This document shows positions 25,185 to 59,314 of a DNA stretch of 64,000 nucleotides, one piece after another (the first letter of the stretch is position 1; every line of letters starts with the position of its first letter). The DNA is from Cordilura impudica (taxonomy: Eukaryota > Arthropoda > Insecta > Diptera > Scathophagidae), in contig OY821519.1 in assembly GCA_963682025.1 (NCBI GenBank), forward strand, positions 188,789,253 through 188,853,252. Reading direction: 5' to 3'. The position numbers and the translations under genes were made by a program. The notes under the pieces were generated by a model. It was not told the DNA's origin and did not search any database. It worked only from the letters and a program-made list of their open reading frames with translations.

Positions 25185-26892
25185 AAAAATGTTCCAAAAC
25201 TATCTTTTATACCAACAAATCGATAATAAAAACAAGTAAGAGTGTTAAATTCGGCTGTGCCGAATCTTTGATACCCTCCACCTCGGTCTGAGTCTTGATA
25301 ATAAATGTAAATGAAAAAGTAAACAATTTGTTAAACTTAATACCAAATTATTTCAGCAAATTCTTTGGGTTGGTTTTCTTCTTTTCTATTATTTCGGATT
25401 TATTTCGGTGTTTGCTTTTTGGTCATCGTGGTTGCTGATCGGCATGCATTTTGGTTATATACCTATATGCATGCGTTTCCGGTTATATGACATAACTTCT
25501 CGTTTAATTTAGTTTTTGCTAATTAAATAGCTCGCCCTAACCTCCATTGCAAAGGTAATGGTTGTGTAGAGTGGCTATATGCATTAAATCGTGCTAATTG
25601 GAGATGGCTGTATAGTTTCTTTTAACTGGCCAAATATTTCTTCATTGTGGCCATATAGGTCGGATGGAGTAACAAAATAATAACCAAAAAAAAAGCTCTC
25701 TCAACTTTTTTTTTTAAATATTGCCATATTTTGAAAACATAGAGAATAAATTTATAATAATAAATAATCAAATTAGGGATGAAAAACGCAAAAAACGAAA
25801 AGTCCCAAACATTTTAAATAAAATAATTTAATGTTATCTATATTTTCTGAAAAACTTCAAATTTTCATCCAAAAAAAATTGTGAAAATTTATATATAAAA
25901 AATAACATTCTCATAAAATTACGTTTACTTATGTAACAATTTTTATGTTAGCAATTCTTAAATATCATTTGAGGTTTTCTTAAATTCATTGAATTTAAAT
26001 TAATATCGACAAATCTGTTTTTCTATTTATTTAAATTGTAAAGGAGTGGCATCTCTGTCAAAATAAGCGAAAAACACAAAGAATAGAAAAAAACAAATTA
26101 CTTCGTGTTTGACAGGATGATTTTATGTTTATGTTTAATATCTTTATTTTTTTTACTAATATTTCTGTTTATTTATTTGAAAATGAAATAATGAATTGAA
26201 TATGCTATTTAATTTTTTTATTTATATAAAAAAGTTTTTTAATTAAAGCAAAATATTTTCACTATATCATGATTTTTATTTATGTATGACGACATTTCAA
26301 CCTAAAAATTTAAGTTTTTATCGATTGGATAAACAACACAAAAATGGTTGTCGTTTAGATAACAACAACAGCTGACTTTAACAATAGCGAATATCGTTTC
26401 AAAATTTTACTGATAATTTTTCAATTTTCTTTTTTTTTACAATTCGACTATCGTTAAAAGAAGTTACTGAATCGCGGTACTGAAAAGTTATTAATATCTC
26501 CTGAATGGCAATATTTTTTTTAAATGTAAACATTTTTAAATGTAAAGATATTTCTAAATTTAAAATTATTATTTCCGACGTTTTGATATGATTTTCTGAA
26601 ACTCAATTAATATTTTCTAATTTATAATTGGAAATTTTATTTTCGGTTTTTATTATAATTGATACTTTCTTAAATTTGAATGGAAAATTTAAAAAGTGAA
26701 ATTTTGTATTTATGTGAATAATAATGCTTTATTAATTATAAACAATTCTTAAAAATTAGATGTAATCGCAATCAGATATTTTATAGGTAAAGCAGAATAA
26801 TAATTCTATATAACTATGTAGAACTGTTTTGTAAGCAAAAAACTCATTGACGAACTCGGTAACTCTATTTTGTAAAGACAACAAAAAGTTAA

Positions 26893-27467
26893 CCCCCCAA
26901 TCTCACATCACACTGAAATTGTAAAATCGTTGTGTACGTATTATCAACGAAAAATTGTTCGAATTAGTCGAATCCATCGCCATTAAATTTTATGCTCAAA
27001 CATCTGACTGCAATCTCATTTTTAAAATGTTGTCGAAGCGTAAACTTGAAAACATTTGTATACTTCTCTCTCTTATTTTATTTTAAGTAGAGTTACCAAG
27101 TTTATTATACAGGCACATGTTTGAGGGAAAATGTTTACATTTATTATTATTAGTATTATTTTAATAATAGTTAATAATATTTATGCTCTATAATTAACAA
27201 ACTTGCGTTTTTGTATGCGCATTTCAAAAAATAAATCATTATAATAGATTTAACAAGTTAAAACTTTAATTACAATTTTACAGAATCCAGTAAATTTGCA
27301 TTAAATTTATAACAGGGTAACATTAATCATCGTTAGTGTCTGCCACTATTCGCACGAAAAATTTGGTGCCATTAGTGTGACCACTGCGGAAAATGTGTGT
27401 GTATTAGTAAAAAAAATGTGAGTGTATTGAGTTTTTCGAACTTGCAGTGTGATGTGAGATTGGTGGG
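26893..27467. mobile_element. 575-bp MITE with TAA target duplication (Harbinger-like)
   Basis: Terminal inverted repeats are CCCCCCAATCTCACATCACA... at the left and the complement of CCCACCAATCTCACATCACA at the right, with one or two mismatches over 23 bp. It is flanked by TAA on both sides. The empty site GTTAATATGCC is preserved in block A near 671-676 and in A'. A 3-bp TWA-type duplication fits the PIF/Harbinger superfamily. Confidence 0.85.
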
Positions 27468-27958
27468 TAATATGCCAAACTTATGTTCATATTTGTAAAA
27501 GAATAATGAAAAAACGTATGAAATAAAAGACCAACCCGTGTATACTCTTAACATTGTTCTGTATGATATCTAGTTGAAAATATTAACATTCATGTTAAAA
27601 TAGAAATAACTATTGCAAAGCTAATTAGAACAAACAAAAATTATGACGGCATCTACTGTGGCATAGTCACGCTGAGCAAAATGAAGTGACACTCTGTTAT
27701 ACAAAAGAAATGTATTTTCCCCACAACAAAATACTGCAGAATTTTATGTAAATAAAATAACCGATTTATTTCTAACATGCAGTTACTATGAATATACATA
27801 CATACATATATATAATATATGTACATTATTTGTATTATTTAATATGTGTATGTATGTATATTTAAATATTACACACAAAAAATACAACATCAAACGTTAT
27901 TTTTGTGTTTTTCTCTTTAAATAAATTAATACATAAATTTTTTTGCTAAATTTACATT

Positions 27959-28572
27959 TGGGCAATTCACAACAGGTGTTGTATATTGTATGTTGTATTG
28001 AAATACACAATACAATCATTTGTTGTGAACACTCAGTTGTATTTTCATATTGTAAAACGCTTTCTTTAGTAATTTTCGATCCAACGAGGAAAGATCGCTT
28101 CGTCGCTTCTGCTATTTTGTATAAGAGAAAACACTTGTCAGTGTTTGCTTTTTGGTCGTGAGATGTACCCTGGAGTTTTAGTTACGTACCTCTTGCATTT
28201 TAATTTATAATGAAAAAAAAATGTTAAATGTTTTGGTTGGTACTGAAAGAGAAAATACATACTAAAAATATAAACATTAATTTTTATATAAATAAACTTA
28301 TCGATGTATTTGCGTTATTTGCCATATTTTATTTTATAATTATTTATGCTGATAATATTCTATGTATTTGTTTTTTCTTTTTCATAAAAACTGGCATTCA
28401 CTTGGAACTGATATGTTATGATACAATATACAACATTTACTAAACATAGCAAATGAAGTTGGATCGTGTATCAGATTTTTCAGTAAAAATTACCAACAAC
28501 AATTTTACACTATTGTAAAGTGATACACGATACAAGAGATACAACGATACATTACCCATTGTGAATTGCCCA
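27959..28572. mobile_element. 614-bp MITE with ATT target duplication
   Basis: Inverted repeats TGGGCAATTCACAA and TTGTGAATTGCCCA lie between duplicated ATT. The empty site ACATTGTTTTTT is present in blocks A (near 1915) and A'. Sub-terminal TTGTATATTGTATGTTGTAT and GATACAATATACAACATT are also mutually inverted. Small open frames inside show no domain. The 3-bp duplication again suggests a Harbinger-type parent. Confidence 0.85.
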
Positions 28573-29436
28573 ATTGTTTTTTTTATTAACAACTAGGTAT
28601 TTTAGCATTATTTGCTTTAGATGTTGGTGAATTTTTACTCCCTTTATATTAACTCGTAGTGTCTGCTTGTCGAAAAAATTTTGGATCGATTTTAACCACT
28701 TTCCCGTGACCCAATCGATCTGAAATTTTGCAGGCAGGCTTGTGGCAATGACAGAAATGATCTAACATATTTTTTTAGTGATGCCAAAACAATGGAAACT
28801 TTTAAATTTTTCTACCAGAGTTGATAAAAAAAATGTACAAAGGGTTTGTTTTTGTTATATTATTACCATAACGACCACAAAAACAACAAGTCCAGCTATG
28901 AAAACAATGCAACATTTAGAATAACAACAAGAACAATATAGAAATATCATGTTTTTCATTTTTTTTTACTTTTTCAGAGATTTCCCTGGACCTGTTCCAC
29001 CGATTTTAATGATTTTTGAAGTAGAAATCTTTCCATGAATTTGGTGAATCATTCTCAAATGATCACTGTAGCTGCACTATTGAGGGCGTGATCGTGACAA
29101 GAACAACATAGAAAATTATTTTTTTTTCAAGACTTTTTTAGTTCTTCATTCAAATCTCGGGCCCTAATCGACCGATTTGGACGATTTTAAATAGCAAATT
29201 TCTCAGGATGTTAGTGAATCATTTTTATGTCAATGAGTACCCTAGCTGCCGGATTGATGCCGTCATCGTGATTTCCACAGACGGACAGACGGACAGACGG
29301 ACATCGCTATATCAACTCCGGTTGTTATAAGGATCTCAAATATATAAATTTTATGGGGTCCAAAATTTTTTTTCTAATTATTACAAACGGAATGACAAAC
29401 TTATATATACCCTCTGCACACTGGAGTGGAGGGTAT

Positions 29437-32400
29437 AACAACTCTACAACAGCAACAATGAGTCATATGTTTTTCAAATAGGAAAAAACTGTTTATGTGT
29501 TAGTTTCGGTCATTCCCCAGTATGCATTGAAATATTATTTCGCCAATGTTGGAGAAAAGTTAAGTTCTTAAATTGATGTCAAATGTAATTCTCAACTTGG
29601 GTTGAACAATTTTTCTCCTTGTTTGCTTTCAACTTGACATCAAGTTGAGACTTAACATTTTTTCCAATCTTTGAGAAACATTTTTACTCTCAATTGGATA
29701 TCCAACACTTTTCTCCACTTGAGACCAAACATTTTTTCAACTTGAATACGATTTGTGTTAAGTCTGAGATATTATTTAAATATGTCATAAATAATAAATT
29801 AAATTAAAAAATGCCAAAAAAGTACAAATAAATCATTGATATATTTTTAATTATTTCTGCTTTTTGTCAAATTTTTCAAAAAATGTACAACTAATTAATT
29901 CATTTATTTTTAATTCTAGATTTTAAAAAATGTACATAATATGTACATTTAATGTTAAATATGTACATAGTAATGTTAAATATATAATGAAATTAAATTG
30001 AAAATTGAAACATTAAAAAAAGTAATTGTTTTCATTTCTAAAATTAGTATAATATTTTTTAATATGGCAATTCCGTACCTTCCATTTGATACCGATTGGA
30101 AATATTTCTTTGCTATCAAGTTGAGAATCACAAATTTCTCAATTTGATAACTATGAAAATCGCCATATAAAAAATGTGCCTTTTAAGTTGAGAAGACTAT
30201 ATTCGAACTATTGAGGGCATTTGAGAATTAACGTTGGAGATTTGAAAAATGTATTTGATCTCAAATGCACCTCAACTTGATAGCAAACAAAAATGTTTAG
30301 TGGGACATTTATTGTAGGGTCGTTTGCACACACACAAAAAATAGAAAATAAATTGTCAATAAGCAAAGCAAGTGGCTTCGAAATTCGATGATGGCAGTTA
30401 ATCATTTTTTGTTCACGAGGAATTTATAATTGGAGGAATTTTTTTTCTCGAGAAATGTATTTTCCGTGAGAAAGAAATTCCTTGAGAATATTCATAATTG
30501 GGATGAATAACTTTTAATTGGAACTTTTTAGTCAGAATAAATCATAATTCTAGTTAGATATTGGTTAATATTTAATTAGAAAAAATATTGTGGTGGCATC
30601 TACGCAATTATTGAGGCAGTCACGGAAAAATTAAATGCAAGTCTGTTTTTTTTAATATAACAAAAATGGATTTTCCCTTTAACAAAATATGGCAGAATTC
30701 TTTATAAATGAAATGCAAAATGGAAAATCAATTTTGTGCTAATTCTTAACAAAATTAATAATATATATATATATATATATTATTATATTTATTAATATTT
30801 GTAATTTTATTTGACACAATTTCACACACAGTTTTACAGATCAACTGATTTAGAAGTTTTCTGTTTTTGAAACAGTAGTGCCAATTTGTAATATTTTGTG
30901 ATGTAATGAAAATCGCAGAATAATAAGTTAATACACAATAAAAAATATTAAATTTTTAAGTTTTATATACATATTGCAATAAAAAAACTTTGGTAAATTT
31001 ACACTGAAGATGGTCAGAAATGAATGAGAAAAAATATATAGGCATTTTAGAAAAGCACATTTAATATTAAACTTTATGCACAAAATATATGGGTTTTTGT
31101 TGTTTCGAATTTAACTGTGGCTCTAAGTGAAAAGTTTTAGACCGATCGTATATTACATCTTGAGGATCCTCACCTAATATTTTCAAATATTTTAAATTCT
31201 TTTTAACTCATTTAACCTCATTACGAAAATAGTAAAACAGTAAATATGGAAAATCCACGCACCTCAAAAAATTGTTTTCTATGAAATAAATTAAAGACAT
31301 TTCATATTATACAATTTTCTTTCAAAAATGTATCAATTATTGCAAATTTGAAATTTGACATATAGTATTTGTACATATATTTGTATAGATTTCGCAGTAT
31401 GAAAAGAACTATTATTTCTTTATTTAGAATATATGTAAGTATTGCTCGCAAAAAAATGCAACATCATGCATGAAACACATAGACGACTGCTGCCAGCAGC
31501 ATTTGTAGTCGTGTAGTTAGCTACTTGATTTTTCTGAATACGACAGCAACATATAATACAAATGCATTTTGATTTAAATATACAATTACTTTTACTTATT
31601 TAAAATGTATTAGTATAACGTAAAAATAAATAAACAAATTAATTTAACCCCTTTTGATTATTAATGGAATTATAGCCTTTCATTTTGCGATTTTTTTTTT
31701 AACAAAATAAAATATTTCATAGCACTAATTTCTTTTACATATTTTGTTATATTGTCAACACTATTTTTGTTTTGTAGCCAACAAAACACACTTGCAGTTT
31801 TTTTTTTTTCTATTTGAAGAACATATGACTGCCATTGTTGATGTTGTAGAGTTGTTTTTTTTTTTTTGATTTTGTTTCGTTAACTCTTTTGTATTAAAGC
31901 ACCTCCAATATATGTATCCATTTTAGTTTGCAAATTCAGTATATTTATAATTTATTACTTACAGCAAAAAATAATAGAAACAATTTTATCAGTTATGCTT
32001 ACGAAACTATATAAATAGACTTGAAGTTGGCTGCAAAAGCAGTAGCCTGTGTAAAGAACAAGTTAGCGACATGTAACTGTTACGTAACGTGTCAGCCTTT
32101 TTTTCACATGAAAAGTATTGGGACGTTCCGGTTACGTTCGGTAACTGTTTTAAATGATTTTCATGTAAAAAAAAGCAACTGACTCGTTACGATTACGGGT
32201 AGAAAACATTGACCTTTTATATGTATTATAATGCTATGAATGCATTTATCTTTATTTTATTTTATTTATATATTCTTTTTTTTTGTATTGTATATTATTT
32301 TTTTTTATTATTATTACTATTTCATTTAATTATTTTTTTCTTTAAATAAATTAATACATAAAAATTTGTTTTTTAAATTATTGGTGAACTTTTACTCCCT

Positions 32401-33212
32401 TTACTTACTGCCTTTATATTAACTGGTAGTGTCTGCTTGTCGACAAAATTTTGGATCGATTTTTAGCCCCTTTCCCGTGAGCCAATCGATCTGAAATTTT
32501 GCATGCAGGCTCGTAGCAATGACAGAAATGATCTAACAAATTTTTTTAGTGATGCCAAAACAATGGAAACTTTTAAAATTTTCTACCAGAGTTCACAAAA
32601 AAATGTACAAAGGGTTTGTTTTTATTATATTATTACCACAACGACCACAAAAACAACAAGTCCAGCTATGACAACAATGCAACATTTAGAATAACAACAG
32701 GAACAATATGGAAACATCATGTTTTTCATTTTTTTTTTAATTTTTCATAGATTTACCTGGACTTGTTCCACCGATTTTAATGATTTTTGAAGTAGAAATC
32801 TTTCCATGAATTTGGTGAATCATTCTCACTAAAAATGATCACTGTAGCTGCACTATTGAGGGCGTGATCGTGACAAGAACAACATAGAAAATTATTTTTT
32901 TTTCAAGACTTTTTTAGTTCTTCATTCAAATCTCGGGCCCTAATCGACCGATTTGGACGATTTTAAATAGCAAATTTCTCAGGATGTTAGTGAATCATTT
33001 TTATGTCAATGAGTACCCTAGCTGCCGGATTGATGCCGTCATCGTGATTTCCACAGACGGACAGACGGACAGACGGACATCGCTATATCAACTCCGGTTG
33101 TTATAAGGATCTCAAATATATAAATTTTATGGGGTCCAAAATTTTTTTTCTAATTATTACAAACGGAATGACAAACTTATATATACCCTCTGCACACTGG
33201 AGTGGAGGGTAT
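29437..33212 (+). repeat. 3776-bp tandem unit E (first copy)
   Basis: First copy of a tandem duplication inside the HLE2 unit, running from one HLE2 3' end to the next. It holds a region rich in CTCAACTTGA-like motifs (29540-30330), TA microsatellite (about 30763-30780), a 109-nt hairpin (32083-32191) and an HLE2 3' end. That 3' end is a hybrid: like the distal type up to 32763 and like the proximal type from 32803. Confidence 0.9.
32083..32191. repeat. Imperfect hairpin, about 32-bp arms
   Basis: CGTAACGTGTCAGCCTTTTT and CACATGAAAA on the left are mirrored by TTTTCATGTAAAAAAAAGC and GACTCGTTACG on the right, with a loop of about 45 nt. Copies lie at 35859-35967 and 58176-58284. Confidence 0.7.
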
Positions 33213-36200
33213 AACAACTCTACAACAGCAACAATGAGTCATATGTTTTTCAAATAGGAAAAAACTGTTTATGTGTTAGTTTCGGTCATTCCCCAGTATG
33301 CATTGAAATATTATTTCGCCAATGTTGGAGAAAAGTTAAGTTCTTAAATTGATGTCAAATGTAATTCTCAACTTGGGTTGAACAATTTTTCTCCTTGTTT
33401 GCTTTCAACTTGACATCAAGTTGAGACTTAACATTTTTTCCAATCTTTGAGAAACATTTTTACTCTCAATTGGATATCCAACACTTTTCTCCACTTGAGA
33501 CCAAACATTTTTTCAACTTGAATACGATTTGTGTTAAGTCTGAGATATTATTTAAATATGTCATAAATAATAAATTAAATTAAAAAATGCCAAAAAAGTA
33601 CAAATAAATCATTGATATATTTTTAATTATTTCTGCTTTTTGTCAAATTTTTCAAAAAATGTACAACTAATTAATTCATTTATTTTTAATTCTAGATTTT
33701 AAAAAATGTACATAATATGTACATTTAATGTTAAATATGTACATAGTAATGTTAAATATATAATGAAATTAAATTGAAAATTGAAACATTAAAAAAAGTA
33801 ATTGTTTTCATTTCTAAAATTAGTATAATATTTTTTAATATGGCAATTCCGTACCTTCCATTTGATACCGATTGGAAATATTTCTTTGCTATCAAGTTGA
33901 GAATCACAAATTTCTCAATTTGATAACTATGAAAATCGCCATATAAAAAATGTGCCTTTTAAGTTGAGAAGACTATATTCGAACTATTGAGGGCATTTGA
34001 GAATTAACGTTGGAGATTTGAAAAATGTATTTGATCTCAAATGCACCTCAACTTGATAGCAAACAAAAATGTTTAGTGGGACATTTATTGTAGGGTCGTT
34101 TGCACACACACAAAAAATAGAAAATAAATTGTCAATAAGCAAAGCAAGTGGCTTCGAAATTCGATGATGGCAGTTAATCATTTTTTGTTCACGAGGAATT
34201 TATAATTGGAGGAATTTTTTTTCTCGAGAAATGTATTTTCCGTGAGAAAGAAATTCCTTGAGAATATTCATAATTGGGATGAATAACTTTTAATTGGAAC
34301 TTTTTAGTCAGAATAAATCATAATTCTAGTTAGATATTGGTTAATATTTAATTAGAAAAAATATTGTGGTGGCATCTACGCAATTATTGAGGCAGTCACG
34401 GAAAAATTAAATGCAAGTCTGTTTTTTTTAATATAACAAAAATGGATTTTCCCTTTAACAAAATATGGCAGAATTCTTTATAAATGAAATGCAAAATGGA
34501 AAATCAATTTTGTGCTAATTCTTAACAAAATTAATAATATATATATATATATATATTATTATATTTATTAATATTTGTAATTTTATTTGACACAATTTCA
34601 CACACAGTTTTACAGATCAACTGATTTAGAAGTTTTCTGTTTTTGAAACAGTAGTGCCAATTTGTAATATTTTGTGATGTAATGAAAATCGCAGAATAAT
34701 AAGTTAATACACAATAAAAAATATTAAATTTTTAAGTTTTATATACATATTGCAATAAAAAAACTTTGGTAAATTTACACTGAAGATGGTCAGAAATGAA
34801 TGAGAAAAAATATATAGGCATTTTAGAAAAGCACATTTAATATTAAACTTTATGCACAAAATATATGGGTTTTTGTTGTTTCGAATTTAACTGTGGCTCT
34901 AAGTGAAAAGTTTTAGACCGATCGTATATTACATCTTGAGGATCCTCACCTAATATTTTCAAATATTTTAAATTCTTTTTAACTCATTTAACCTCATTAC
35001 GAAAATAGTAAAACAGTAAATATGGAAAATCCACGCACCTCAAAAAATTGTTTTCTATGAAATAAATTAAAGACATTTCATATTATACAATTTTCTTTCA
35101 AAAATGTATCAATTATTGCAAATTTGAAATTTGACATATAGTATTTGTACATATATTTGTATAGATTTCGCAGTATGAAAAGAACTATTATTTCTTTATT
35201 TAGAATATATGTAAGTATTGCTCGCAAAAAAATGCAACATCATGCATGAAACACATAGACGACTGCTGCCAGCAGCATTTGTAGTCGTGTAGTTAGCTAC
35301 TTGATTTTTCTGAATACGACAGCAACATATAATACAAATGCATTTTGATTTAAATATACAATTACTTTTACTTATTTAAAATGTATTAGTATAACGTAAA
35401 AATAAATAAACAAATTAATTTAACCCCTTTTGATTATTAATGGAATTATAGCCTTTCATTTTGCGATTTTTTTTTTAACAAAATAAAATATTTCATAGCA
35501 CTAATTTCTTTTACATATTTTGTTATATTGTCAACACTATTTTTGTTTTGTAGCCAACAAAACACACTTGCAGTTTTTTTTTTTTCTATTTGAAGAACAT
35601 ATGACTGCCATTGTTGATGTTGTAGAGTTGTTTTTTTTTTTTTGATTTTGTTTCGTTAACTCTTTTGTATTAAAGCACCTCCAATATATGTATCCATTTT
35701 AGTTTGCAAATTCAGTATATTTATAATTTATTACTTACAGCAAAAAATAATAGAAACAATTTTATCAGTTATGCTTACGAAACTATATAAATAGACTTGA
35801 AGTTGGCTGCAAAAGCAGTAGCCTGTGTAAAGAACAAGTTAGCGACATGTAACTGTTACGTAACGTGTCAGCCTTTTTTTCACATGAAAAGTATTGGGAC
35901 GTTCCGGTTACGTTCGGTAACTGTTTTAAATGATTTTCATGTAAAAAAAAGCAACTGACTCGTTACGATTACGGGTAGAAAACATTGACCTTTTATATGT
36001 ATTATAATGCTATGAATGCATTTATCTTTATTTTATTTTATTTATATATTCTTTTTTTTTGTATTGTATATTATTTTTTTTTATTATTATTACTATTTCA
36101 TTTAATTATTTTTTTCTTTAAATAAATTAATACATAAAAATTTGTTTTTTAAATTATTGGTGAACTTTTACTCCCTTTACTTACTGCCTTTATATTAACT

Positions 36201-36997
36201 GGTAGTGTCTGCTTGTCGACAAAATTTTGGATCGATTTTTAGCCCCTTTCCCGTGAGCCAATCGATCTGAAATTTTGCATGCAGGCTCGTAGCAATGACA
36301 GAAATGATCTAACAAATTTTTTTAGTGATGCCAAAACAATGGAAACTTTTAAAATTTTCTACCAGAGTTCACAAAAAAATGTACAAAGGGTTTGTTTTTA
36401 TTATATTATTACCACAACGACCACAAAAACAACAAGTCCAGCTATGACAACAATGCAACATTTAGAATAACAACAGGAACAATATGGAAACATCATGTTT
36501 TTCATTTTTTTTTTAATTTTTCATAGATTTACCTGGACTTGTTCCACCGATTTTAATGATTTTTGAAGTAGAAATCTTCCCATGAATTTGGTGAATCATT
36601 CTCACTAAAAATTATCACCCTAGCTATCCTATTGAGGGCGTGATCGTGACAAGAACAACATAGAAAATTATATTTTTTCAAGACTTTTTTTAGTTCTTCA
36701 TTCAAATCTCGGGCCCTAATTGACCGATTTGGACGATTTTAAATAGCAAACTTTTCAGGATGTTAATGAATCATTTTTTATGCCAACGAGCACCCTAGCT
36801 GCCCGATTGATGCCGTCATCGTGATTTCCACAGACGGACAGACGGACAGACGGACAGACGGACATCGCTATATCAACTCCGGTTATTATAAGGATCACAA
36901 ATATATATATTTTATGGGGTCCAAATTTTTTTTTCTAATTATTACAAACGGAATGACAAACTTATATATACCCTCTGCACACTGGAGTGGAGGGTAT
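33213..36997 (+). repeat. 3785-bp tandem unit E' (second copy)
   Basis: Second copy of unit E. It is almost identical until the terminal few hundred bases, where it carries the distal HLE2 3' type (TCTTCCCATGAATTTGG, ATCACCCTAGCTATCC, and a longer GACGGACA run at 36832-36862). It ends GGGTAT at 36997. Confidence 0.9.
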
Positions 36998-37766: not shown

Positions 37767-38244
37767 AATTATGAACTTTTCCAAAAATCTCTAAATTGTT
37801 CATCGCATGGATTCCAAAACTCTCTATTTATTTATTTCATTTATTTATTTGTTTTAAATTACGTGTACCTATTCTCTCAAGGAAACATTGTTTTCAAAAC
37901 TATTTTAATAGATAGTTTTCGTTGGTCTAATGTAGTATCAGTAATACCGTTATTATCAAACAGTACTTTTAAATGAAATTGTATTTTATTTATTTGGGAT
38001 TTCAATTTTACCAGTCGGTTGTGTAATATCGTACATTGAGCACCTACTCACATTATTTTGTTGTTTCATTGTAATTTTTCATTGTAATTAATTTATATTA
38101 TTTTATTGTGTTAAATTGTGCATTTAATTGTGTTTGATTTGTGTAATTTTTATGTGTACATATTATTAAATTCAACTATGGGTATAGAAGAATCGAACCG
38201 GATTGATAGAAAGGCAATGTTAATTGAATTCGGAAAAGGAGCAT

Positions 38245-47494: not shown

Positions 47495-47765
47495 TTCGGT
47501 TTGTGCTAAGAAAAGCATGAATATATGTTTCCCAGGGCGAAGCTTCATCATTGCACTATGATTGAGTTGAGCTCCGCGACTATTCATAATGTGAATAGCT
47601 CGTGTCAAAAATTTTTGGTAGTTGGGAATGGCGTTTGTGTTAAGAAAAGCATAAACGCATGTTTCCCAGGGCAAGGCTCGATCATTGCACATTGATTGAG
47701 CTGAGCTCCGCGGTTATTCTTAATGTGGATAACTGTTGAAACAAAATTTTCGGAATGGCGTTTGC
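47495..47765 (+). repeat. Two diverged tandem units of about 135 bp
   Basis: GCTAAGAAAAGCATGAA at about 47506 and GTTAAGAAAAGCATAAAC at about 47640 begin matching segments that share TGTTTCCCAGGGC, ATCATTGCAC, TTGAG.TGAGCTCCGCG and TTC.TAATGTG. The family is unrecognised. Confidence 0.75.
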
Positions 47766-48092
47766 CTCCGTCCCGACATTAAATAACAAAGTTTAAAAAT
47801 TTATTTTAATTAACATCTTTTTTTAACATCTGACAAAAAATAGTATTTTTCTAAACAACAATTTTTATTACAGGGTAAATAAATATTTTATGGCTTACCT
47901 ACCTACCTACTACTTTTGAAAGCAAGTATGCAGGGTTTATACATGTACTAAAAATACAACTCTTAAAACCATACTATTTTTTCAACTCTAAAAATTTCAG
48001 AATTTTGTAAAAATAAAATACCGATTTATTTTAATATGCGCTTATTATGGATATACATACATATACAAAATATATGAATATTATTTATAGTA
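47766..48092. other. AT-rich flank of the mariner element
   Basis: HLE2-like body sequence (GCGCTTATTATGGATATACA at about 48037, compare GCAGTTATTATGGATATACA at 983) leads to TA at 48091-48092, the target of the mariner insertion. Confidence 0.5.
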
Positions 48093-49398
48093 ACGGGTGA
48101 TTTTTTTGAGGTTAGGATTTTCATGCATTAGTATTTGACAGATCACGTGGGATTTCAGACATGGTGTCAAAGAGAAAGATGCTCAGTATGCTTTGACATT
48201 TCATCATGAATAGACTTACTAACGAGCAACGCTTGCAAATCATTGAATTTTATTACCAAAATCAGTGTTCGGTTCGAAATGTGTTTCACGCTTTACGTCC
48301 GATTTATGGTCTACATAATCGACCAAGTGAGCAAACAATTAATGCGATTGTGACCAAGTTTCGCACTCAGTTTACTTTATTGGACATTAAACCAACCACA
48401 CGAATGCGTACAGTGCGTACAGAAGAGAATATTGCGTCTGTTTCTGAGAGTGTTACTGAAGACCGTGAAATGTCGATTCGTCGCCGTTCGCAGCAATTGG
48501 GTTTGTGTTATTCGACCACATGGAAGATTTTACGCAAAGATCTTGGTGTAAAACCGTATAAAATACAGCTCGTGCAAGAACTGAAGCCGAACGATCTGCC
48601 ACAACGTCTAATTTTCAGTGAATGGGCCCTAGAAAAGTTGGCAGAAAATCCGCTTTTTTATCGACAAATTTTGTTCAGCGATGAGGCTCATTTCTGGTTG
48701 AATGGCTTCGTAAATAAGCAAAATTGCCGTATTTGGAGTGAAGAGCAACCAGAAGCCGTTCAAGAACTGCCCATGCATCCCGAAAAATGCACTGTTTGGT
48801 GTGGTTTGTACGCTGGTGGAATCATTGGACCGTATTTTTTCAAAGATGCTGTTGGACGCAACGTTACGGTGAATGGCGATCGCTATCGTTCGATGCTAAC
48901 AAACTTTTTGTTGCCAAAAATGGAAGAACTGAACTTGGTTGACATGTGGTTTCAACAAGATGGCGCTACATGCCACACAGCTCGCGATTCTATGGCCATT
49001 TTGAGGGAAAACTTCGGAGAACAATTTATCTCAAGAAATGGACCGGTAAGTTGGCCACCAAGATCATGCGATTTGACGCCTTTAGACTATTTTTTGTGGG
49101 GCTACGTCAAGTCTAAAGTCTACAGAAATAAGCCAGCAACTATTCCAGCTTTGGAAGACAACATTTCCGAAGAAATTCGGGCTATTCCGGCCGAAATGCT
49201 CGAAAAAGTTGCCCAAAATTGGACTTTCCGAATGGACCACCTAAGACGCAGCCGCGGTCAACATTTAAATGAAATTATCTTCAAAAAGTAAATGTCATGG
49301 ACCAATCTAACGTTTCAAATAAAGAACCGATGAGATTTTGCAAATTTTATGCGTTTTTTTTTAAAAAAAAGTTATCAAGCTCTTAAAAAATCACCCTT
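48093..49398 (+). mobile_element. Complete DD41D mariner-type transposon
   Basis: A 1306-bp element flanked by TA on both sides (48091-48092 and 49399-49400). The ends are ACGGGTGATTTTTTTGAG at the left and, read inward, AAGGGTGATTTTTTAAGAG at the right, about 14-17 bp of inverted repeat. It holds one intact transposase frame. The intact ORF, matching ends and clean TA duplication point to a recent insertion. It lies in an HLE2. Confidence 0.95.
48206..49291 (+). CDS. Mariner-family transposase, DD41D
   Basis: A 361-residue IS630/Tc1/mariner transposase that cuts and pastes its own element at TA sites in the nucleus. The N-terminal half has paired helix-turn-helix DNA-binding regions (about 1-60 and 85-115). 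The catalytic triad is Asp159 (ILFSDEAHFWLNG), Asp252 (WFQQDGATCHTA) and Asp294 (CDLTPLDYFLWG). There are 41 residues between the last two when the DLxPxDY motif is aligned with mariner, hence DD41D, as in rosa-like elements. The C-terminus ends MDHLRRSRGQHLNEIIFKK. The start ATG at 48206 gives the usual MNRLTNEQR opening, and the size fits the family (about 340-360). No frameshift or stop is present. An AATAAA signal at about 49318 follows the stop. Confidence 0.95.
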   Translation: MNRLTNEQRLQIIEFYYQNQCSVRNVFHALRPIYGLHNRPSEQTINAIVTKFRTQFTLLDIKPTTRMRTVRTEENIASVSESVTEDREMSIRRRSQQLGLCYSTTWKILRKDLGVKPYKIQLVQELKPNDLPQRLIFSEWALEKLAENPLFYRQILFSDEAHFWLNGFVNKQNCRIWSEEQPEAVQELPMHPEKCTVWCGLYAGGIIGPYFFKDAVGRNVTVNGDRYRSMLTNFLLPKMEELNLVDMWFQQDGATCHTARDSMAILRENFGEQFISRNGPVSWPPRSCDLTPLDYFLWGYVKSKVYRNKPATIPALEDNISEEIRAIPAEMLEKVAQNWTFRMDHLRRSRGQHLNEIIFKK

Positions 49399-50150
49399 TA
49401 TTTTGATATTGGCAACAGTAGTATGTATCAATTTGTAACATTTTGTGATGTTATAAAAATCGCAGAATATTGATATTGATTTTATATAGTTTCTTTTATT
49501 AATTAATTAACTTAAATATTACACCAAAAAATATTGATATTGATGAATTTTTATATTATTAACACAACGACCACAAAAACAACATGCACAGCTATGACAA
49601 AATACAAAATTTAGGAAAACAATATAGGAAAACGTCATATTTTTTTTTACCTTTTCAGTGATTTCTCGGCACCTATGAAACCTATTGTCATGATTTAAAA
49701 ACAGGAACCTTTTCAAGATGTTAGTGAATCATTCTCACTAAAAACAAGCGCCCTATCTGCCCTATTGAGGGCGTTATCACAAGAACACATATTCAAATCA
49801 TATTTTCTCATGACTTTTTAATTCTTCGCTCAATTCTCGGGACCAGATTAACCGATTTGGACGATTTTAAATAGCAAACTTCTCAGGATGTTAGTGAATC
49901 ATTTTTTATACCAAGGAGCACCCTAGCTATCCGATTGAAGCCGTCATCGTGATTTCCACAGACGGACAGACGGACAGACGGACAGCCGGACAGACGGACA
50001 GACGGACAGACGGACATCGTTATATCAGCTTCGCTTGTTATAAGGATCACAAATATATATATTTTATGGGGTCCAGAATTTTTTTTTCTAATTATTACAA
50101 ACGGAATGACAAACTTATATATACCCTCTGCACACTGGAGTGGAGGGTAT
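49399..50150 (+). mobile_element. HLE2 3' portion right of the mariner
   Basis: This resumes the HLE2 body interrupted by mariner. CAATTTGTAACATTTTGTGATG is shared with 30880, and ACACAACGACCACAAAAACA with other HLE2 copies. The (GACGGACA)n tract at 49960-50017 is longer than in the other copies and has one CCGGACAGAC interruption. The end is GAGGGTAT. Confidence 0.75.
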
Positions 50151-50245
50151 AAACACAGAAGAGCTCGAACCGAACCTATGCTGGAAATCCTACCTCGACA
50201 GCTCTTATGGTTCCGGAGATCATTCGTTACAATCAAATGCATCAA

Positions 50246-50688
50246 CGTTTTTATATATACGCCACGCCCCTTTGCCCACTAACAACTTTATATAGCTAAG
50301 GTCTTATTATTTCGCAAAAATATCCTTTTGTGAAAATTTCATGACGATCCTTCCAGTAGTTTAGAAGATATTACGATTTTTTATTTTTCTAAAAAGGGGC
50401 GTGGTCCCGCCCACTTTTCTTCTGGTATGTATTTCTATTCATGCTAATACCATATGTACCAAATATGACTGTTGTAGGTAAAAAAATTCCCGTGATATGA
50501 CTTTTTTAAATTTTTGGTTATATGGGCGTGGCACCGCCCCTTTGTCCAATCAAAAATTTATATAGCATATTATTCCTTCCAGAGTCACAGTAACACGCTC
50601 TGAAAATTTCAGGAAGATCGGTTCTTTGGTTTGGCCTCCTATAAAGCACAAACAAACACACATTCATTTTTATATATATAGATAGATT
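50246..50688 (+). mobile_element. CACGCCC-type element, short
   Basis: CGCCACGCCCCTTTGCCCAC, then AAAAAGGGGCGTGGTCCCGC, then GAAAATTTCAGGAAGATCGG and CAAACAAACACACATTCATT ... TATATATATAGATA. It has the same architecture and tail as the larger family members, with two to three internal CGCCC or GGGCG blocks. Confidence 0.6.
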
Positions 50689-51321
50689 GAAAGCAGATTA
50701 ATTATGATTTAAGATAAAATGGGGCGAAAAAGGGGGACTCGGTAATAAAAAAATGTATGGCTACCTTACCTGTAGATAAAAAGTGTATAAAACTTTAGAT
50801 AAATACATATTACAAAAAAATTATTTTGTATAGCAAACATTGTTAGTGGTATAAGTAAAAAAAAAAGGGGGCGGTGAAATGGGCGTGGTTCATAGTTATA
50901 TGGCGACGTTAACAGTATTAAGAGCAATATACTACCAAATAAAAAAATCCGTTGGAAGGAACAAATTTGTACAGAGAAAAAAAGTTTAAAACTTTCAAAC
51001 AAAATTTGGCGTGAAAAGGGGCGTGAAAGGGGGCGTGGCGTAAGAAATGTTTATTTCTACCTCGCCTGGAGTATAATGTGTATACAATTTGAAGTAAATC
51101 TGTTAAAAACTATATGGGAGCAATTACATAATTTTAAAAAAGTGGGCGTAAAAGTGGGCGTGGTCAAAAAAAAGTACCCTATTAATCATGCCAGAGTCCC
51201 AGTTAAATGCTGTGAAAATTTCAGGAAGATCGGTCCAGAGGTTTGGTCTCCTATAAGGTACACACAAACAAACAAACAAACAAATAAACAAACACACATT
51301 CAATTTTATATTTATAGATAT
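50689..51321 (+). mobile_element. CACGCCC-type element tail
   Basis: Repeated AAAAGGGGGCGTGG-like blocks at about 50868, 51015 and 51142, then the GAAAATTTCAGGAAGATCGG and (CAAA)n, ACACATTC tail, ending TTTATATTTATAGATAT directly against the next HLE2 start. Possibly the 3' end of the ACCCGG-type element that starts at 43013. Confidence 0.6.
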
Positions 51322-52983
51322 AACAAGTAAGAGTGTTAAATTCGGCTGTGCCGAATCTTTGATACCCTCCACCTCGGTTTGAGTCTTGATAATAAATGTA
51401 AATGAAAAAGTAAACAATTTGTTAAACTTAATACCAAATTATTTCAGCAAATTCTTTGGGTTGGTTTTCTTCTTTTCTATTATTTCGGATTTATTTCGGT
51501 GTTTGCTTTTTGGTCATCGTGGTTGCTGATCGGCATGCATTTTGGTTATATACCTATATGCATGCGTTTCCGGTTATATGACATAACTTCTCGTTTAATT
51601 TAGTTTTTGCTAATTAAATAGCTCGCCCTAACCTCCATTGCAAAGGTAATGGTTGTGTAGAGTGGCTATATGCATTAAATCGTGCTAATTGGAGATGGCT
51701 GTATAGTTTCTTTTAACTGGCCAAATATTTCTTCATTGTGGCCATATAGGTCGGATGGAGTAACAAAATAATAACCAAAAAAAAAGCTCTCTCAACTTTT
51801 TTTTTTAAATATTGCCATATTTTGAAAACATAGAGAATAAATTTATAATAATAAATAATCAAATTAGGGATGAAAAACGCAAAAAACGAAAAGTCCCAAA
51901 CATTTTAAATAAAATAATTTAATGTTATCTATATTTTCTGAAAAACTTCAAATTTTCATCCAAAAAAAATTGTGAAAATTTATATATAAAAAATAACATT
52001 CTCATAAAATTACGTTTACTTATGTAACAATTTTTATGTTAGCAATTCTTAAATATCATTTGAGGTTTTCTTAAATTCATTGAATTTAAATTAATATCGA
52101 CAAATCTGTTTTTCTATTTATTTAAATTGTAAAGGAGTGGCATCTCTGTCAAAATAAGCGAAAAACACAAAGAATAGAAAAAAACAAATTACTTCGTGTT
52201 TGGCAGGATGATTTTATGTTTATGTTTAATATCTTTATTTTTTTTACTAATATTTCTGTTTATTTATTTGAAAATGAAATAATGAATTGAATATGCTATT
52301 TAATTTTTTTATTTATATAAAAAAGTTTTTTAATTAAAGCAAAATATTTTCACTATATCATGATTTTTATTTATGTATGACGACATTTCAACCTAAAAAT
52401 TTAAGTTTTTATCGATTGGATAAACAACACAAAAATGGTTGTCGTTTAGATAACAACAACAGCTGACTTTAACAATAGCGAATATCGTTTCAAAATTTTA
52501 CTGATAATTTTTCAATTTTCTTTTTTTTTACAATTCGACTATCGTTAAAAGAAGTTACTGAATCGCGGTACTGAAAAGTTATTAATATCTCCTGAATGGC
52601 AATATTTTTTTTAAATGTAAACATTTTTAAATGTAAAGATATTTCTAAATTTAAAATTATTATTTCCGACGTTTTGATATGATTTTCTGAAACTCAATTA
52701 ATATTTTCTAATTTATAATTGGAAATTTTATTTTCAGTTTTTATTATAATTGATAGTTTCTTAAATTTGAATGGAAAATTTAAAAAGTGAAATTTTGTAT
52801 TTATGTGAATAATAATGCTTTATTAATTATAAACAATTCTTAAAAATTAGATGTAATCGCAATCAGATATTTTATAGGTAAAGCAGAATAATAATTCTAT
52901 ATAACTATGTAGAACTGTTTTGTAAGCAAAAAACTCATTGACGAACTCGGTAACTCTATTTTGTAAAGACAACAAAAAGTTAA

Positions 52984-53558
52984 CCCCCCAATCTCACATC
53001 ACACTGAAATTGTAAAATCGTTGTGTACGTATTATCAACGAAAAATTGTTCGAATTAGTCGAATCCATCGCCATTAAATTTTATGCTCAAACATCTGACT
53101 GCAATCTCATTTTTAAAATGTTGTCGAAGCGTAAACTTGAAAACATTTGTATACTTCTCTCTCTTATTTTATTTTAAGTAGAGTTACCAAGTTTATTATA
53201 CAGGCACATGTTTGAGGGAAAATGTTTACATTTATTATTATTAGTATTATTTTAATAATAGTTAATAATATTTATGCTCTATAATTAACAAACTTGCGTT
53301 TTTGTATGCGCATTTCAAAAAATAAATCATTATAATAGATTTAACAAGTTAAAACTTTAATTACAATTTTACAGAATCCAGTAAATTTGCATTAAATTTA
53401 TAACAGGGTAACATTAATCATCGTTAGTGTCTGCCACTATTCGCACGAAAAATTTGGTGCCATTAGTGTGACCACTGCGGAAAATGTGTGTGTATTAGTA
53501 AAAAAAATGTGAGTGTATTGAGTTTTTCGAACTTGCAGTGTGATGTGAGATTGGTGGG
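52984..53558. mobile_element. 575-bp MITE (TAA duplication), second copy
   Basis: Same element and same position inside the HLE2 unit as 26893-27467. It moved as a passenger rather than by its own transposition. Confidence 0.85.
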
Positions 53559-54049
53559 TAATATGCCAAACTTATGTTCATATTTGTAAAAGAATAATGA
53601 AAAAACGTATGAAATAAAAGACCAACCCGTGTATACTCTTAACATTGTTCTGTATGATATCTAGTTGAAAATATTAACATTCATGTTAAAATAGAAATAA
53701 CTATTGCAAAGCTAATTAGAACAAACAAAAATTATGACGGCATCTACTGTGGCATAGTCACGCTGAGCAAAATGAAGTGACACTCTGTTATACAAAAGAA
53801 ATGTATTTTCCCCACAACAAAATACTGCAGAATTTTATGTAAATAAAATAACCGATTTATTTCTAACATGCAGTTACTATGAATATACATACATACATAT
53901 ATATAATATATGTACATTATTTGTATTATTTAATATGTGTATGTATGTATATTTAAATATTACACACAAAAAATACAACATCAAACGTTATTTTTGTGTT
54001 TTTCTCTTTAAATAAATTAATACATAAATTTTTTTGCTAAATTTACATT

Positions 54050-54663
54050 TGGGCAATTCACAACAGGTGTTGTATATTGTATGTTGTATTGAAATACACA
54101 ATACAATCATTTGTTGTGAACACTCAGTTGTATTTTCATATTGTAAAACGCTTTCTTTAGTAATTTTCGATCCAACGAGGAAAGATCGCTTCGTCGCTTC
54201 TGCTATTTTGTATAAGAGAAAACACTTGTCAGTGTTTGCTTTTTGGTCGTGAGATGTACCCTGGAGTTTTAGTTACGTACCTCTTGCATTTTAATTTATA
54301 ATGAAAAAAAAATGTTAAATGTTTTGGTTGGTACTGAAAGAGAAAATACATACTAAAAATATAAACATTAATTTTTATATAAATAAACTTATCGATGTAT
54401 TTGCGTTATTTGCCATATTTTATTTTATAATTATTTATGCTGATAATATTCTATGTATTTGTTTTTTCTTTTTCATAAAAACTGGCATTCACTTGGAACT
54501 GATATGTTATGATACAATATACAACATTTACTAAACATAGCAAATGAAGTTGGATCGTGTATCAGATTTTTCAGTAAAAATTACCAACAACAATTTTACA
54601 CTATTGTAAAGTGATACACGATACAAGAGATACAACGATACATTACCCATTGTGAATTGCCCA
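54050..54663. mobile_element. 614-bp MITE (ATT duplication), second copy
   Basis: Same element and position inside the HLE2 unit as 27959-28572. Confidence 0.85.
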
Positions 54664-55532
54664 ATTGTTTTTTTTATTAACAACTAGGTATTTTAGCATT
54701 ATTTGCTTTAGATGTTGGTGAATTTTTACTCCCTTTATATTAACTCGTAGTGTCTGCTTGTCGAAAAAATTTTGGATCGATTTTAACCACTTTCCCGTGA
54801 CCCAATCGATCTGAAATTTTGCAGGCAGGCTTGTGGCAATGACAGAAATGATCTAACATATTTTTTTAGTGATGCCAAAACAATGGAAACTTTTAAATTT
54901 TTCTACCAGAGTTGATAAAAAAAATGTACAAAGGGTTTGTTTTTGTTATATTATTACCATAACGACCACAAAAACAACAAGTCCAGCTATGAAAACAATG
55001 CAACATTTAGAATAACAACAAGAACAATATAGAAATATCATGTTTTTCATTTTTTTTTACTTTTTCAGAGATTTCCCTGGACCTGTTCCACCGATTTTAA
55101 TGATTTTTGAAGTAGAAATCTTTCCATGAATTTGGTGAATCATTCTCACTAAAAATGATCACTGTAGCTGCACTATTGAGGGCGTGATCGTGACAAGAAC
55201 AACATAGAAAATTATTTTTTTTTCAAGACTTTTTTAGTTCTTCATTCAAATCTCGGGCCCTAATCGACCGATTTGGACGATTTTAAATAGCAAATTTCTC
55301 AGGATGTTAGTGAATCATTTTTATGTCAATGAGTACCCTAGCTGCCGGATTGATGCCGTCATCGTGATTTCCACAGACGGACAGACGGACAGACGGACAT
55401 CGCTATATCAACTCCGGTTGTTATAAGGATCTCAAATATATAAATTTTATGGGGTCCAAAATTTTTTTTCTAATTATTACAAACGGAATGACAAACTTAT
55501 ATATACCCTCTGCACACTGGAGTGGAGGGTAT

Positions 55533-58500
55533 AACAACTCTACAACAGCAACAATGAGTCATATGTTTTTCAAATAGGAAAAAACTGTTTATGTGTTAGT
55601 TTCGGTCATTCCCCAGTATGCATTGAAATATTATTTCGCCAATGTTGGAGAAAAGTTAAGTTCTTAAATTGATGTCAAATGTAATTCTCAACTTGGGTTG
55701 AACAATTTTTCTCCTTGTTTGCTTTCAACTTGACATCAAGTTGAGACTTAACATTTTTTCCAATCTTTGAGAAACATTTTTACTCTCAATTGGATATCCA
55801 ACACTTTTCTCCACTTGAGACCAAACATTTTTTCAACTTGAATACGATTTGTGTTAAGTCTGAGATATTATTTAAATATGTCATAAATAATAAATTAAAT
55901 TAAAAAATGCCAAAAAAGTACAAATAAATCATTGATATATTTTTAATTATTTCTGCTTTTTGTCAAATTTTTCAAAAAATGTACAACTAATTAATTCATT
56001 TATTTTTAATTCTAGATTTTAAAAAATGTACATAATATGTACATTTAATGTTAAATATGTACATAGTAATGTTAAATATATAATGAAATTAAATTGAAAA
56101 TTGAAACATTAAAAAAAGTAATTGTTTTCATTTCTAAAATTAGTATAATATTTTTTAATATGGCAATTCCGTACCTTCCATTTGATACCGATTGGAAATA
56201 TTTCTTTGCTATCAAGTTGAGAATCACAAATTTCTCAATTTGATAACTATGAAAATCGCCATATAAAAAATGTGCCTTTTAAGTTGAGAAGACTATATTC
56301 GAACTATTGAGGGCATTTGAGAATTAACGTTGGAGATTTGAAAAATGTATTTGATCTCAAATGCACCTCAACTTGATAGCAAACAAAAATGTTTAGTGGG
56401 ACATTTATTGTAGGGTCGTTTGCACACACACAAAAAATAGAAAATAAATTGTCAATAAGCAAAGCAAGTGGCTTCGAAATTCGATGATGCCAGTTAATCA
56501 TTTTTTGTTCACGCGGAATTTATAATTGGAGGAATTTTTTTTCTCGAGAAATGTATTTTCCGTGAGAAAGAAATTCCTTGAGAATATTCATAATTGGGAT
56601 GAATAACTTTTAATTGGAACTTTTTAGTCAGAATAAATCATAATTCTAGTTAGATATTGGTTAATATTTAATTAGAAAAAATATTGTGGTGGCATCTACG
56701 CAATTATTGAGGCAGTCACGGAAAAATTAAATGCAAGTCTGTTTTTTTTAATATAACAAAAATGGATTTTCCCTTTAACAAAATATGGCAGAATTCTTTA
56801 TAAATGAAATGCAAAATGGAAAATCAATTTTGTGCTAATTCTTAACAAAATTAATAATATATATATATATATATTATTATATTTATTAATATTTGTAATT
56901 TTATTTGACACAATTTCACACACAGTTTTACAGATCAACTGATTTAGAAGTTTTCTGTTTTTGAAACAGTAGTGCCAATTTGTAATATTTTGTGATGTAA
57001 TGAAAATCGCAGAATAATAAGTTAATACACAATAAAAAATATTAAATTTTTAAGTTTTATATACATATTGCAATAAAGAAACTTTGGTAAATTTACACTG
57101 AAGATGGTCAGAAATGAATGAGAAAAAATATATAGGCATTTTAGAAAAGCACATTTAATATTAAACTTTATGCACAAAATATATGGGTTTTTGTTGTTTC
57201 GAATTTAACTGTGGCTCTAAGTGAAAAGTTTTAGACCGATCGTATATTACATCTTGAGGATCCTCACCTAATATTTTCAAATATTTTAAATTCTTTTTAA
57301 CTCATTTAACCTCATTACGAAAATAGTAAAACAGTAAATATGGAAAATCCACGCACCTCAAAAAATTGTTTTCTATGAAATAAATTAAAGACATTTCATA
57401 TTATACAATTTTCTTTCAAAAATGTATCAATTATTGCAAATTTGAAATTTGACATATAGTATTTGTACATATATTTGTATAGATTTCGCAGTATGAAAAG
57501 AACTATTATTTCTTTATTTAGAATATATGTAAGTATTGCTCGCAAAAAAATGCAACATCATGCATGAAACACATAGACGACTGCTGCCAGCAGCATTTGT
57601 AGTCGTATAGTTAGCTACTTGATTTTTCTGAATACGACAGCAACATATAATACAAATGCATTTTGATTTAAATATACAATTACTTTTACTTATTTAAAAT
57701 GTATTAGTATAACGTAAAAATAAATAAACAAATTAATTTAACCCCTTTTGATTATTAATGGAATTATAGCCTTTCATTTTGCGATTTTTTTTTTAACAAA
57801 ATAAAATATTTCATAGCACTAATTTCTTTTACATATTTTGTTATATTGTCAACACTATTTTTGTTTTGTAGCCAACAAAACACACTTGCAGTTTTTTTTT
57901 TTCTATTTGAAGAACATATGACTGCCATTGTTGATGTTGTAGAGTTGTTTTTTTTTTTTTGATTTTGTTTCGTTAACTCTTTTGTATTAAAGCACCTCCA
58001 ATATATGTATCCATTTTAGTTTGCAAATTCAGTATATTTATAATTTATTACTTACAGCAAAAAATAATAGAAACAATTTTATCAGTTATGCTTACGAAAC
58101 TATATAAATAGACTTGAAGTTGGCTGCAAAAGCAGTAGCCTGTGTAAAGAACAAGTTAGCGACATGTAACTGTTACGTAACGTGTCAGCCTTTTTTTCAC
58201 ATGAAAAGTATTGGGACGTTCCGGTTACGTTCGGTAACTGTTTTAAATGATTTTCATGTAAAAAAAAGCAACTGACTCGTTACGATTACGGGTAGAAAAC
58301 ATTGACCTTTTATATGTATTATAATGCTATGAATGCATTTATCTTTATTTTATTTTATTTATATATTCTTTTTTTTTGTATTGTATATTATTTTTTTTTA
58401 TTATTATTACTATTTCATTTAATTATTTTTTTCTTTAAATAAATTAATACATAAAAATTTGTTTTTTAAATTATTGGTGAACTTTTACTCCCTTTACTTA

Positions 58501-59314
58501 CTGCCTTTATATTAACTGGTAGTGTCTGCTTGTCGACAAAATTTTGGATCGATTTTTAGCCCCTTTCCCGTGAGCCAATCGATCTGAAATTTTGCATGCA
58601 GGCTCGTAGCAATGACAGAAATGATCTAACAAATTTTTTTAGTGATGCCAAAACAATGGAAACTTTTAAAATTTTCTACCAGAGTTCACAAAAAAATGTA
58701 CAAAGGGTTTGTTTTTATTATATTATTACCACAACGACCACAAAAACAACAAGTCCAGCTATGACAACAATGCAACATTTAGAATAACAACAGGAACAAT
58801 ATGGAAACATCATGTTTTTCATTTTTTTTTTAATTTTTCATAGATTTACCTGGACTTGTTCCACCGATTTTAATGATTTTTGAAGTAGAAATCTTCCCAT
58901 GAATTTGGTGAATCATTCTCACTAAAAATTATCACCCTAGCTATCCTATTGAGGGCGTGATCGTGACAAGAACAACATAGAAAATTATATTTTTTCAAGA
59001 CTTTTTTTAGTTCTTCATTCAAATCTCGGGCCCTAATTGACCGATTTGGACGATTTTAAATAGCAAACTTTTCAGGATGTTAATGAATCATTTTTTATGC
59101 CAACGAGCACCCTAGCTGCCCGATTGATGCCGTCATCGTGATTTCCACAGACGGACAGACGGACAGACGGACAGACGGACATCGCTATATCAACTCCGGT
59201 TATTATAAGGATCACAAATATATATATTTTATGGGGTCCAAATTTTTTTTTCTAATTATTACAAACGGAATGACAAACTTATATATACCCTCTGCACACT
59301 GGAGTGGAGGGTAT
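55533..59314 (+). repeat. Unit E'' (single copy, 3782 bp)
   Basis: Counterpart of E and E'. It starts after a proximal-type HLE2 3' end (TCTTTCCATG, GATCACTGTAGCTGCAC) and finishes with the distal type (TCTTCCCATG, ATCACCCTAGCTATCC). It has private changes absent from E and E', such as GATGATGCCAG for GATGATGGCAG near 56488. Confidence 0.9.

What the first reader, a model, noticed from the sequence alone, without database searches (positions are those of the whole stretch)
25231..59314. An 8-12 kb non-autonomous Helentron-like unit mobilised twice, carrying passenger MITEs
Segments 25231-36997 and 51322-59314 share exactly the same first bases (AACAAGTAAGAGTG) and last bases (GAGTGGAGGGTAT) and are almost identical inside, yet their left flanks are unrelated and their right flanks are too. 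That is the hallmark of transposition of the entire unit. Such a length without any transposase frame is unusual for HINE/DINE-like elements. The unit contains an internal 3' terminus, so mobilisation appears to have read through the first 3' end to a second one, as is known for Helitron 3' end bypass.
Basis: partly seen in the sequence, partly recalled or inferred. Interest (0 to 1): 0.85.

Follow-up and report, generated by a model that had tools for sequence, protein, structure and literature searches.

The report
Composite non-coding rolling-circle transposon, 8 kb
Two near-identical 8-kb stretches in this insect genome are copies of one non-coding rolling-circle jumping element, apparently made when one such element landed inside another and the pair began to move as one; about 1,500 copies of its diagnostic joint are found.

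Summary
In detail: S (25231-36997) and S' (51322-59314) share exact termini, are nearly identical inside and have different flanks. Whole-unit transposition is well supported: the same contig carries an uninterrupted target for each (2822/2823; 8837/8838). Three readings change. (1) By the published HINE/DINE-1 anatomy the elements lie on the minus strand. (2) The 11.8-kb copy is the 8.0-kb unit plus a 3.78-kb duplication made by unequal crossover. (3) It moved far more than twice: the internal joint has 1,522 exact copies. At 12 joint loci sampled, 12 had the 5' module and 9 the exact 3' terminus, with visibly different flanks. Most likely a 4.2-kb HINE inserted into a TT of a repeat downstream of another HINE-type 5' terminus, and replication ran from the outer 5' end to the nested 3' terminator. 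Eleven of 12 joint-less repeat ends read show the repeat uninterrupted. The autonomous-partner search did not complete. Composite Helitron transposition is an idea already in print.

The parts
51322..59314 (-). S', 7,993-bp composite HINE: 5' terminus at 59314, 3' terminus at 51322
25231..36997 (-). S, the same composite plus one extra 3.78-kb X copy; 5' terminus at 36997, 3' terminus at 25231
51322..55532 (-). core HINE of S' (4.2 kb, with MITE1 and MITE2)
25231..29436 (-). core HINE of S
55533..59314 (-). module X of S': HINE 5' region (B2), about 0.5 kb linker, and repeat C ending ..GTTGTAGAGTTGTT
33213..36997 (-). outer module X of S
29437..33212 (-). duplicated module X of S; its B region is a B2/B1 recombinant, switching just before 32803
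   Evidence: 0 mismatches to the outer X over the first 3,366 bp; one switch; about 61 of the 128 columns lie inside B itself
55483..55532 (-). internal 5' terminus of S' (TT|ATACCCTCCACTCC..)
59265..59314 (-). outer 5' terminus of S' with subTIR ATACCCTCCAC and inverted repeat
51322..51372 (-). 3' terminus of S': subTIR GTGGAGGGTAT, palindrome ATTCGGCACAGCCGAAT, ..CTCTTACTTGTT
   Evidence: palindrome folded in S
25231..25281 (-). 3' terminus of S
52983..53559 (.). passenger MITE1 of S' (S: about 26892-27468), apparent TSD TAA
54049..54664 (.). passenger MITE2 of S' (S: about 27958-28573), apparent TSD ATT
2795..2860 (.). uninterrupted target of S, insertion point 2822/2823, immediately beside the 3' end of a family A element
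8805..8870 (.). uninterrupted target of S' (8837/8838) and of y (8834/8835)
43013..51321 (.). y, inserted beside S'; read as a CTAGCTGG.. repeat split by another HINE (43714-50150, minus strand); that the two outer pieces are one repeat is inferred
36998..37768 (-). HINE family A copy whose 3' end directly abuts the 5' end of S

Best explanation
S and S' are two copies of a high-copy non-autonomous Helentron derivative (HINE, DINE-1 type) on the minus strand. The mobile unit is 8.0 kb: module X (a HINE-type 5' terminus, a linker and part of a repeat C) followed without a gap by a complete 4.2-kb core HINE carrying two MITEs. It most likely arose when the core inserted into a TT of repeat C, downstream of another HINE-type 5' terminus. 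A Helentron Rep/helicase supplied in trans then started at the outer 5' end and stopped at the first 3' terminator met, that of the nested core. Shown: termini, uninterrupted targets, a joint shared by about 1,500 places, different flanks. Inferred: rolling-circle replication, trans supply, order of events. The 11.8-kb version adds a tandem copy of X by one unequal crossover.
For: Termini match the published HINE plan: 11-bp subTIR at the 5' edge and 40 nt from the 3' end, 7-bp palindrome 18 nt from the 3' end, mostly TT flanks. Uninterrupted targets for both insertions lie in the other copy of a large duplication. The joint has 1,522 exact copies, reversed control 0. Of 12 joint loci sampled, 12 had X's 5' part or outer terminus, 11 had core and 9 the exact 3' terminus. 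43 of 48 joints on C1:1-162.52 Mb carry the core's MITE2 mark, 40 of these 1.39-1.50 kb away. 11 of 12 joint-less C ends read on in a common sequence, i.e. C without the core. Crossover.
Against: No RepHel-coding partner was seen; the PF14214 search did not complete. Whether uninterrupted C copies carry the B2 5' terminus is untested (X-interior count unanswered, last). Site 1 alone could be a deletion through the 11-bp repeat AACAAGTAAGA, and at site 2 up to 5 bp (TATAA) could be given to either side. The 3' palindrome folds only modestly better than shuffles (z -1.98; 8 of 200 at least as good). An X|X joint on C2 is not explained by the simple model. The first probe's 14 copies all lacked C, although that search skips common words and even missed S'.
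Confidence: 0.82

Rival explanations
1. S and S' are pieces of segmental duplications whose breakpoints fell in repeated HINE ends.
For: The window does hold a large tandem duplication, and unequal crossover between B copies did occur inside S.
Against: Flanks differ at both ends, uninterrupted targets exist for both, and the joint lies on contigs C1-C5 with visibly different flanks in the copies read.
Confidence: 0.05
2. One reading: an internal 3' terminus was bypassed in favour of an outer one.
For: Helraiser experiments show 3' read-through (PMC4778049, passages).
Against: The internal terminus has the 5' anatomy (subTIR at the edge plus inverted repeat); the 3' anatomy (subTIR 40 nt inside, palindrome 18 nt from the end) is at the other, single end.
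Confidence: 0.07
3. X is a complete element with its own 3' end ..GAGTTGTT, and X|core is a tandem of two elements co-mobilised by bypass of X's terminator.
For: An X|X joint exists on C2, and family A directly abuts S in the same way.
Against: Where the joint is absent, 11 of 12 C ends read continue in one shared sequence instead of random flanks.
Confidence: 0.12
4. The duplicated units are two haplotypes wrongly placed in tandem by the assembler, so S and y+S' are heterozygous insertions (compatible with the best explanation).
For: The units differ by few mismatches (6 in 2,836 and 7 in 4,726 columns, but 38 in 5,995 for Q).
Against: Not tested. It would change the age of the insertions but not the reading of S as a transposon.
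Confidence: 0.3

Closest known systems
HINE / DINE-1 (non-autonomous Helentrons; PMC4067079, passages and section 15 seen)
   Same: subTIRs at the published distances, 3' palindrome, TT target, microsatellite inside, clustering with other HINEs
   Different: 8-kb composite of two units with an internal 5' terminus, two passenger MITEs and a foreign repeat segment; no partner identified
Helraiser/Helibat 3' read-through and de novo 3' ends (PMC4778049, passages seen)
   Same: as in that work, the 3' hairpin region is read as the terminator, and a changed 3' boundary carries extra DNA along
   Different: here the new 3' boundary seems to come from a nested second element, so no bypass is needed; canonical Helitron ends are absent
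Helitron tandem arrays and composite transposition (suggested in section 15 of PMC4067079)
   Same: neighbouring elements moved together
   Different: here one precise composite joint occurs about 1,500 times

Membership tests
HINE/DINE-1 (Helentron, non-autonomous) | subTIRs of at least 11 bp at both ends | tested here: met
   ATACCCTCCAC at the 5' edge and GTGGAGGGTAT near the 3' end
HINE/DINE-1 (Helentron, non-autonomous) | 3' subTIR 38-60 nt from the 3' terminus, with a 5-10 bp palindrome 8-35 nt from it | tested here: met
   40 nt; 7-bp stem 18 nt from the end, counted on sequences against the text; folding only modestly better than shuffles (8 of 200 at least as good)
HINE/DINE-1 (Helentron, non-autonomous) | insertion in TT without target-site modification, shown by empty sites | tested here: met
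   two uninterrupted targets, with 11 bp (site 1) and up to 5 bp (site 2) assignable to either side; most, not all, flanks read are TT-type
HINE/DINE-1 (Helentron, non-autonomous) | no coding capacity | tested here: met
   0 Pfam families in six frames of S'
HINE/DINE-1 (Helentron, non-autonomous) | autonomous Rep/helicase/endonuclease partner with the same ends in the genome | not tested
   PF14214 search unanswered
Canonical Helitron | 5' TC and 3' CTRR ends, A|T target | tested here: not met
   ends ATACCC.. and ..CTTGTT in TT, against the definition quoted
TIR/MITE DNA transposon (whole unit) | terminal inverted repeats at both outer ends and a target-site duplication (definition recalled) | tested here: not met
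   the inverted repeat is 40 nt inside the 3' end, and no duplication is needed to explain either site

The most novel reading that the evidence does not exclude
Nesting as a general route to new rolling-circle families: an element inserted inside another hands it a new 3' terminator, so the outer 5' end now exports the truncated host element plus the nested one as a fused unit, and here the fusion became a major family (roughly 1,500 joints).
Probability: 0.5. Interest if true: 0.62.

Novelty: new variant of a known kind. Interest (0 to 1): 0.5.

Why it matters
It gives a legible case of how rolling-circle elements grow, fuse and carry other DNA: both empty sites are in one window, core copies without the joint and uninterrupted C repeats still exist in the same genome, and the fusion can be counted. 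It makes the idea of composite Helentron transposition testable by counting joints, and shows that orientation matters when inferring end bypass.

Tried and rejected
Segmental duplication as the whole explanation was rejected on flanks and empty sites. Chance was rejected for the joint: 1,522 exact copies, reversed control 0. That the 12-kb form was itself the mobile unit was rejected by the B2-to-B1 switch. Of its 128 columns about 67 lie at the edge of B, where the two sequences hardly align, so about 61 count; a second alignment with cut ends gave one B2-type and one ambiguous column of 45 in the B1-type stretch, both near the cut end. That C is a complete TIR element ending at the joint was weakened by the shared continuation in 11 of 12 joint-less ends (these 12 were chosen from 26 such places among the first 100). 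The first end-probe search returned mostly older copies and missed S'; it skips common words, so its 14 copies without C are no estimate. Host: one protein search with the carboxylesterase frame gave 7 unnamed hits; 'insect, likely a fly' rests on repeat types recalled. Rfam gave nothing at gathering threshold. Paper searches listed no report that I recognised as this element, but only open-licence papers are held and only two were opened. PMC4067079: passages and section 15; PMC4778049: passages; all others: listings only.
Full report
What was checked. The two segments exist as described. Self-comparison of the window plus 50 kb on each side shows a large duplication: -5811..2833 matches 16604..25241 at 99.25%, 2823-8817 matches 36998-42923 (in two pieces), 8835-13751 matches 59312-64191, and 14558-16605 matches 64190-66242. 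Copy 1 runs P-Q-R without interruption. Copy 2 runs P'-S-Q'-y-S'-R'. Copy 1 therefore holds the uninterrupted targets..GATAATAAA^AACAAGTAAGAAAA.. for S and ..ATAATAAA(y)TAT^AAAAACAATC.. for S'. No bases are lost. The exact cut cannot be placed within 11 bp at site 1, because S and its neighbour A both end in AACAAGTAAGA, nor within 5 bp (TATAA) at site 2. Since GGGTAT closes the element in most copies read while the opposite flank varies, I read no target-site duplication.

Orientation. HINEs in the paper on DINE-1 have the subTIR about 2-4 nt from the 5' terminus, the other subTIR 38-60 nt from the 3' terminus, a palindrome 8-35 nt from the 3' terminus, and a preference for TT (PMC4067079, passages). 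Read on the minus strand, S' begins TT|ATACCCTCCAC.., has GTGGAGGGTAT 40 nt from its other end and a 7-bp palindrome 18 nt from it. That palindrome, folded in S, is only modestly more stable than shuffles (8 of 200 at least as good; for the 5' inverted repeat of S' 1 of 200). Most of the 14 further family copies show the same two ends; some ends are mutated, and L019 and L020 (3' end) and L014 (5' end) are truncated. No coding partner was available to confirm this.

Size. In S the two X modules have no mismatch over the first 3,366 bp, and the middle B region switches once from B2-type to B1-type (93 then 35 columns; about 26 and 35 of them inside B itself). That is a single unequal crossover inside an 8-kb element. 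S and S' otherwise differ by 4 mismatches and 1 indel in 4,206 bp of core and 4 mismatches and 2 indels in 3,782 bp of X.

Genome-wide. A 421-bp probe across the internal joint gave 40 scored places, all 100% identical, of 174 candidates; three of the 40 are the window's own. The 31-base joint has 1,522 exact copies (787 + 735; reversed control 0). Joints are not elements: S holds two, tandems hold more, and changed joints are missed. I sampled 12 joint loci: 6 of the 40 places, and 6 of the first 100 places. X's 5' part or outer terminus lies on the 5' side in 12 of 12; in L041 and L044 only the last 120-145 bp of B, common to both B types, were in the piece. Core sequence was seen in 11 of 12; the 3' piece of L063 matched only weakly. 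The exact 3' terminus was seen in 9 of 12; the misses are a copy shifted by about 1.4 kb (L042/L043), a shifted one (L065) and L063. The nine 3' flanks and three 5' flanks read are visibly different; I did not align them to each other.

Core alone or composite. A core mark (left edge of MITE2) has 2,251 exact copies. On C1:1-162.52 Mb, 43 of 100 such marks have an exact joint upstream. The other 57 are core-only copies or copies with a changed joint; one of them, at 91383300, has a joint with one changed base. 43 of 48 joints there have the mark: 40 at 1.39-1.50 kb and three at 2.0, 2.2 and 3.6 kb. One full core-only copy is 97.6% identical to the S' core (L010). So copies that begin at the inner and at the outer 5' terminus appear to coexist.

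Origin of the joint. The last 24 bases of C have 2,025 exact copies, more than the joint. Of the first 100 listed, 26 are not in the joint list (my comparison). Of 12 of these 26 read for 41 bp downstream, 11 continue TTTGTTAAGGTTTAGG.. or a close variant, and one is the joint with one changed base. The 11 are what C looks like with no core in it: GTTGTT^TTTGTTAAGG, a TT target. I infer that the core landed in C, and that replication from an upstream HINE 5' terminus then ended at the core's 3' terminator, so that no terminator had to be bypassed. Whether uninterrupted C copies carry that upstream terminus is not tested, because that count did not complete.

Loose ends. On C2, three joints lie about 4.04 kb apart; the middle one is X|X with a B2-type start, apart from nine columns that are mostly one microsatellite unit. 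This is a tandem that the crossover seen in S does not produce unless the exchange lay very near the terminus. Among the first 100 places I saw by eye no same-strand neighbours about 3.8 or 8.0 kb apart. The duplicated units could be two haplotypes misplaced in tandem; this affects dating, not the nature of the element.

Comparison with what is known. The termini and target meet the HINE features tested. The DINE-1 paper already suggests that missed termination or composite transposition between neighbouring elements can carry extra DNA (PMC4067079, section 15). Helraiser experiments show the 3' hairpin acting as terminator and circles with joined ends (PMC4778049, passages). I recognised no report of this composite in the listings. 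I rate it a new variant of a known kind.

Noticed in passing
-5811..66242 in window coordinates (L033, window, L034): Large tandem duplication (about 22.4-kb unit), or two haplotypes placed in tandem, differing by several insertions; a family A element at about 13751-14558 is present in copy 1 only.
   Followed up: partly
16920-18877 (minus), and L033:4508-6462: Two overlapping frames with weak matches to RAG1 (PF12940, 20.7 bits) and DUF1280 (20.3 bits), both below the cut-off of 25; duplicated with the large unit; two frames in L010 look related by eye.
   Followed up: partly
43714-50150 (minus): Another HINE of 6.4 kb with related ends; it holds a 364-aa frame at 48197-49291 (PF16087 match; looks like a Tc1/mariner-type transposase, recalled), and 48085-49401 is 99.5% identical to a stretch in L035.
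   Followed up: partly
417-2776: An older copy of the core HINE (84-97% identical pieces, lacking its 3' end), itself holding a family A element.
   Followed up: partly
8082-8783 and 42190-42961: Arrays of about 100 and 110 copies of TTAAAAA inside the two Q copies, ending about 50 bp before the y insertion point.
   Followed up: no
L069 (C2:159742300-159742800): X|X head-to-tail joint in a tandem with a period of about 4.04 kb.
   Followed up: partly
L064 (C1:102074632-102074891): Two composite 5' ends lie 33 bp apart with the elements pointing away from each other.
   Followed up: no
C1, one search list: Joint copies look denser further along C1: of the first 100 places, 49 lie below 162.7 Mb and 51 between 163.5 and 206.8 Mb (counted by eye).
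   Followed up: no
10472-10930 and 60916-61374 (minus): A carboxylesterase-like frame (PF00135, for the first) in both copies of R.
   Followed up: partly
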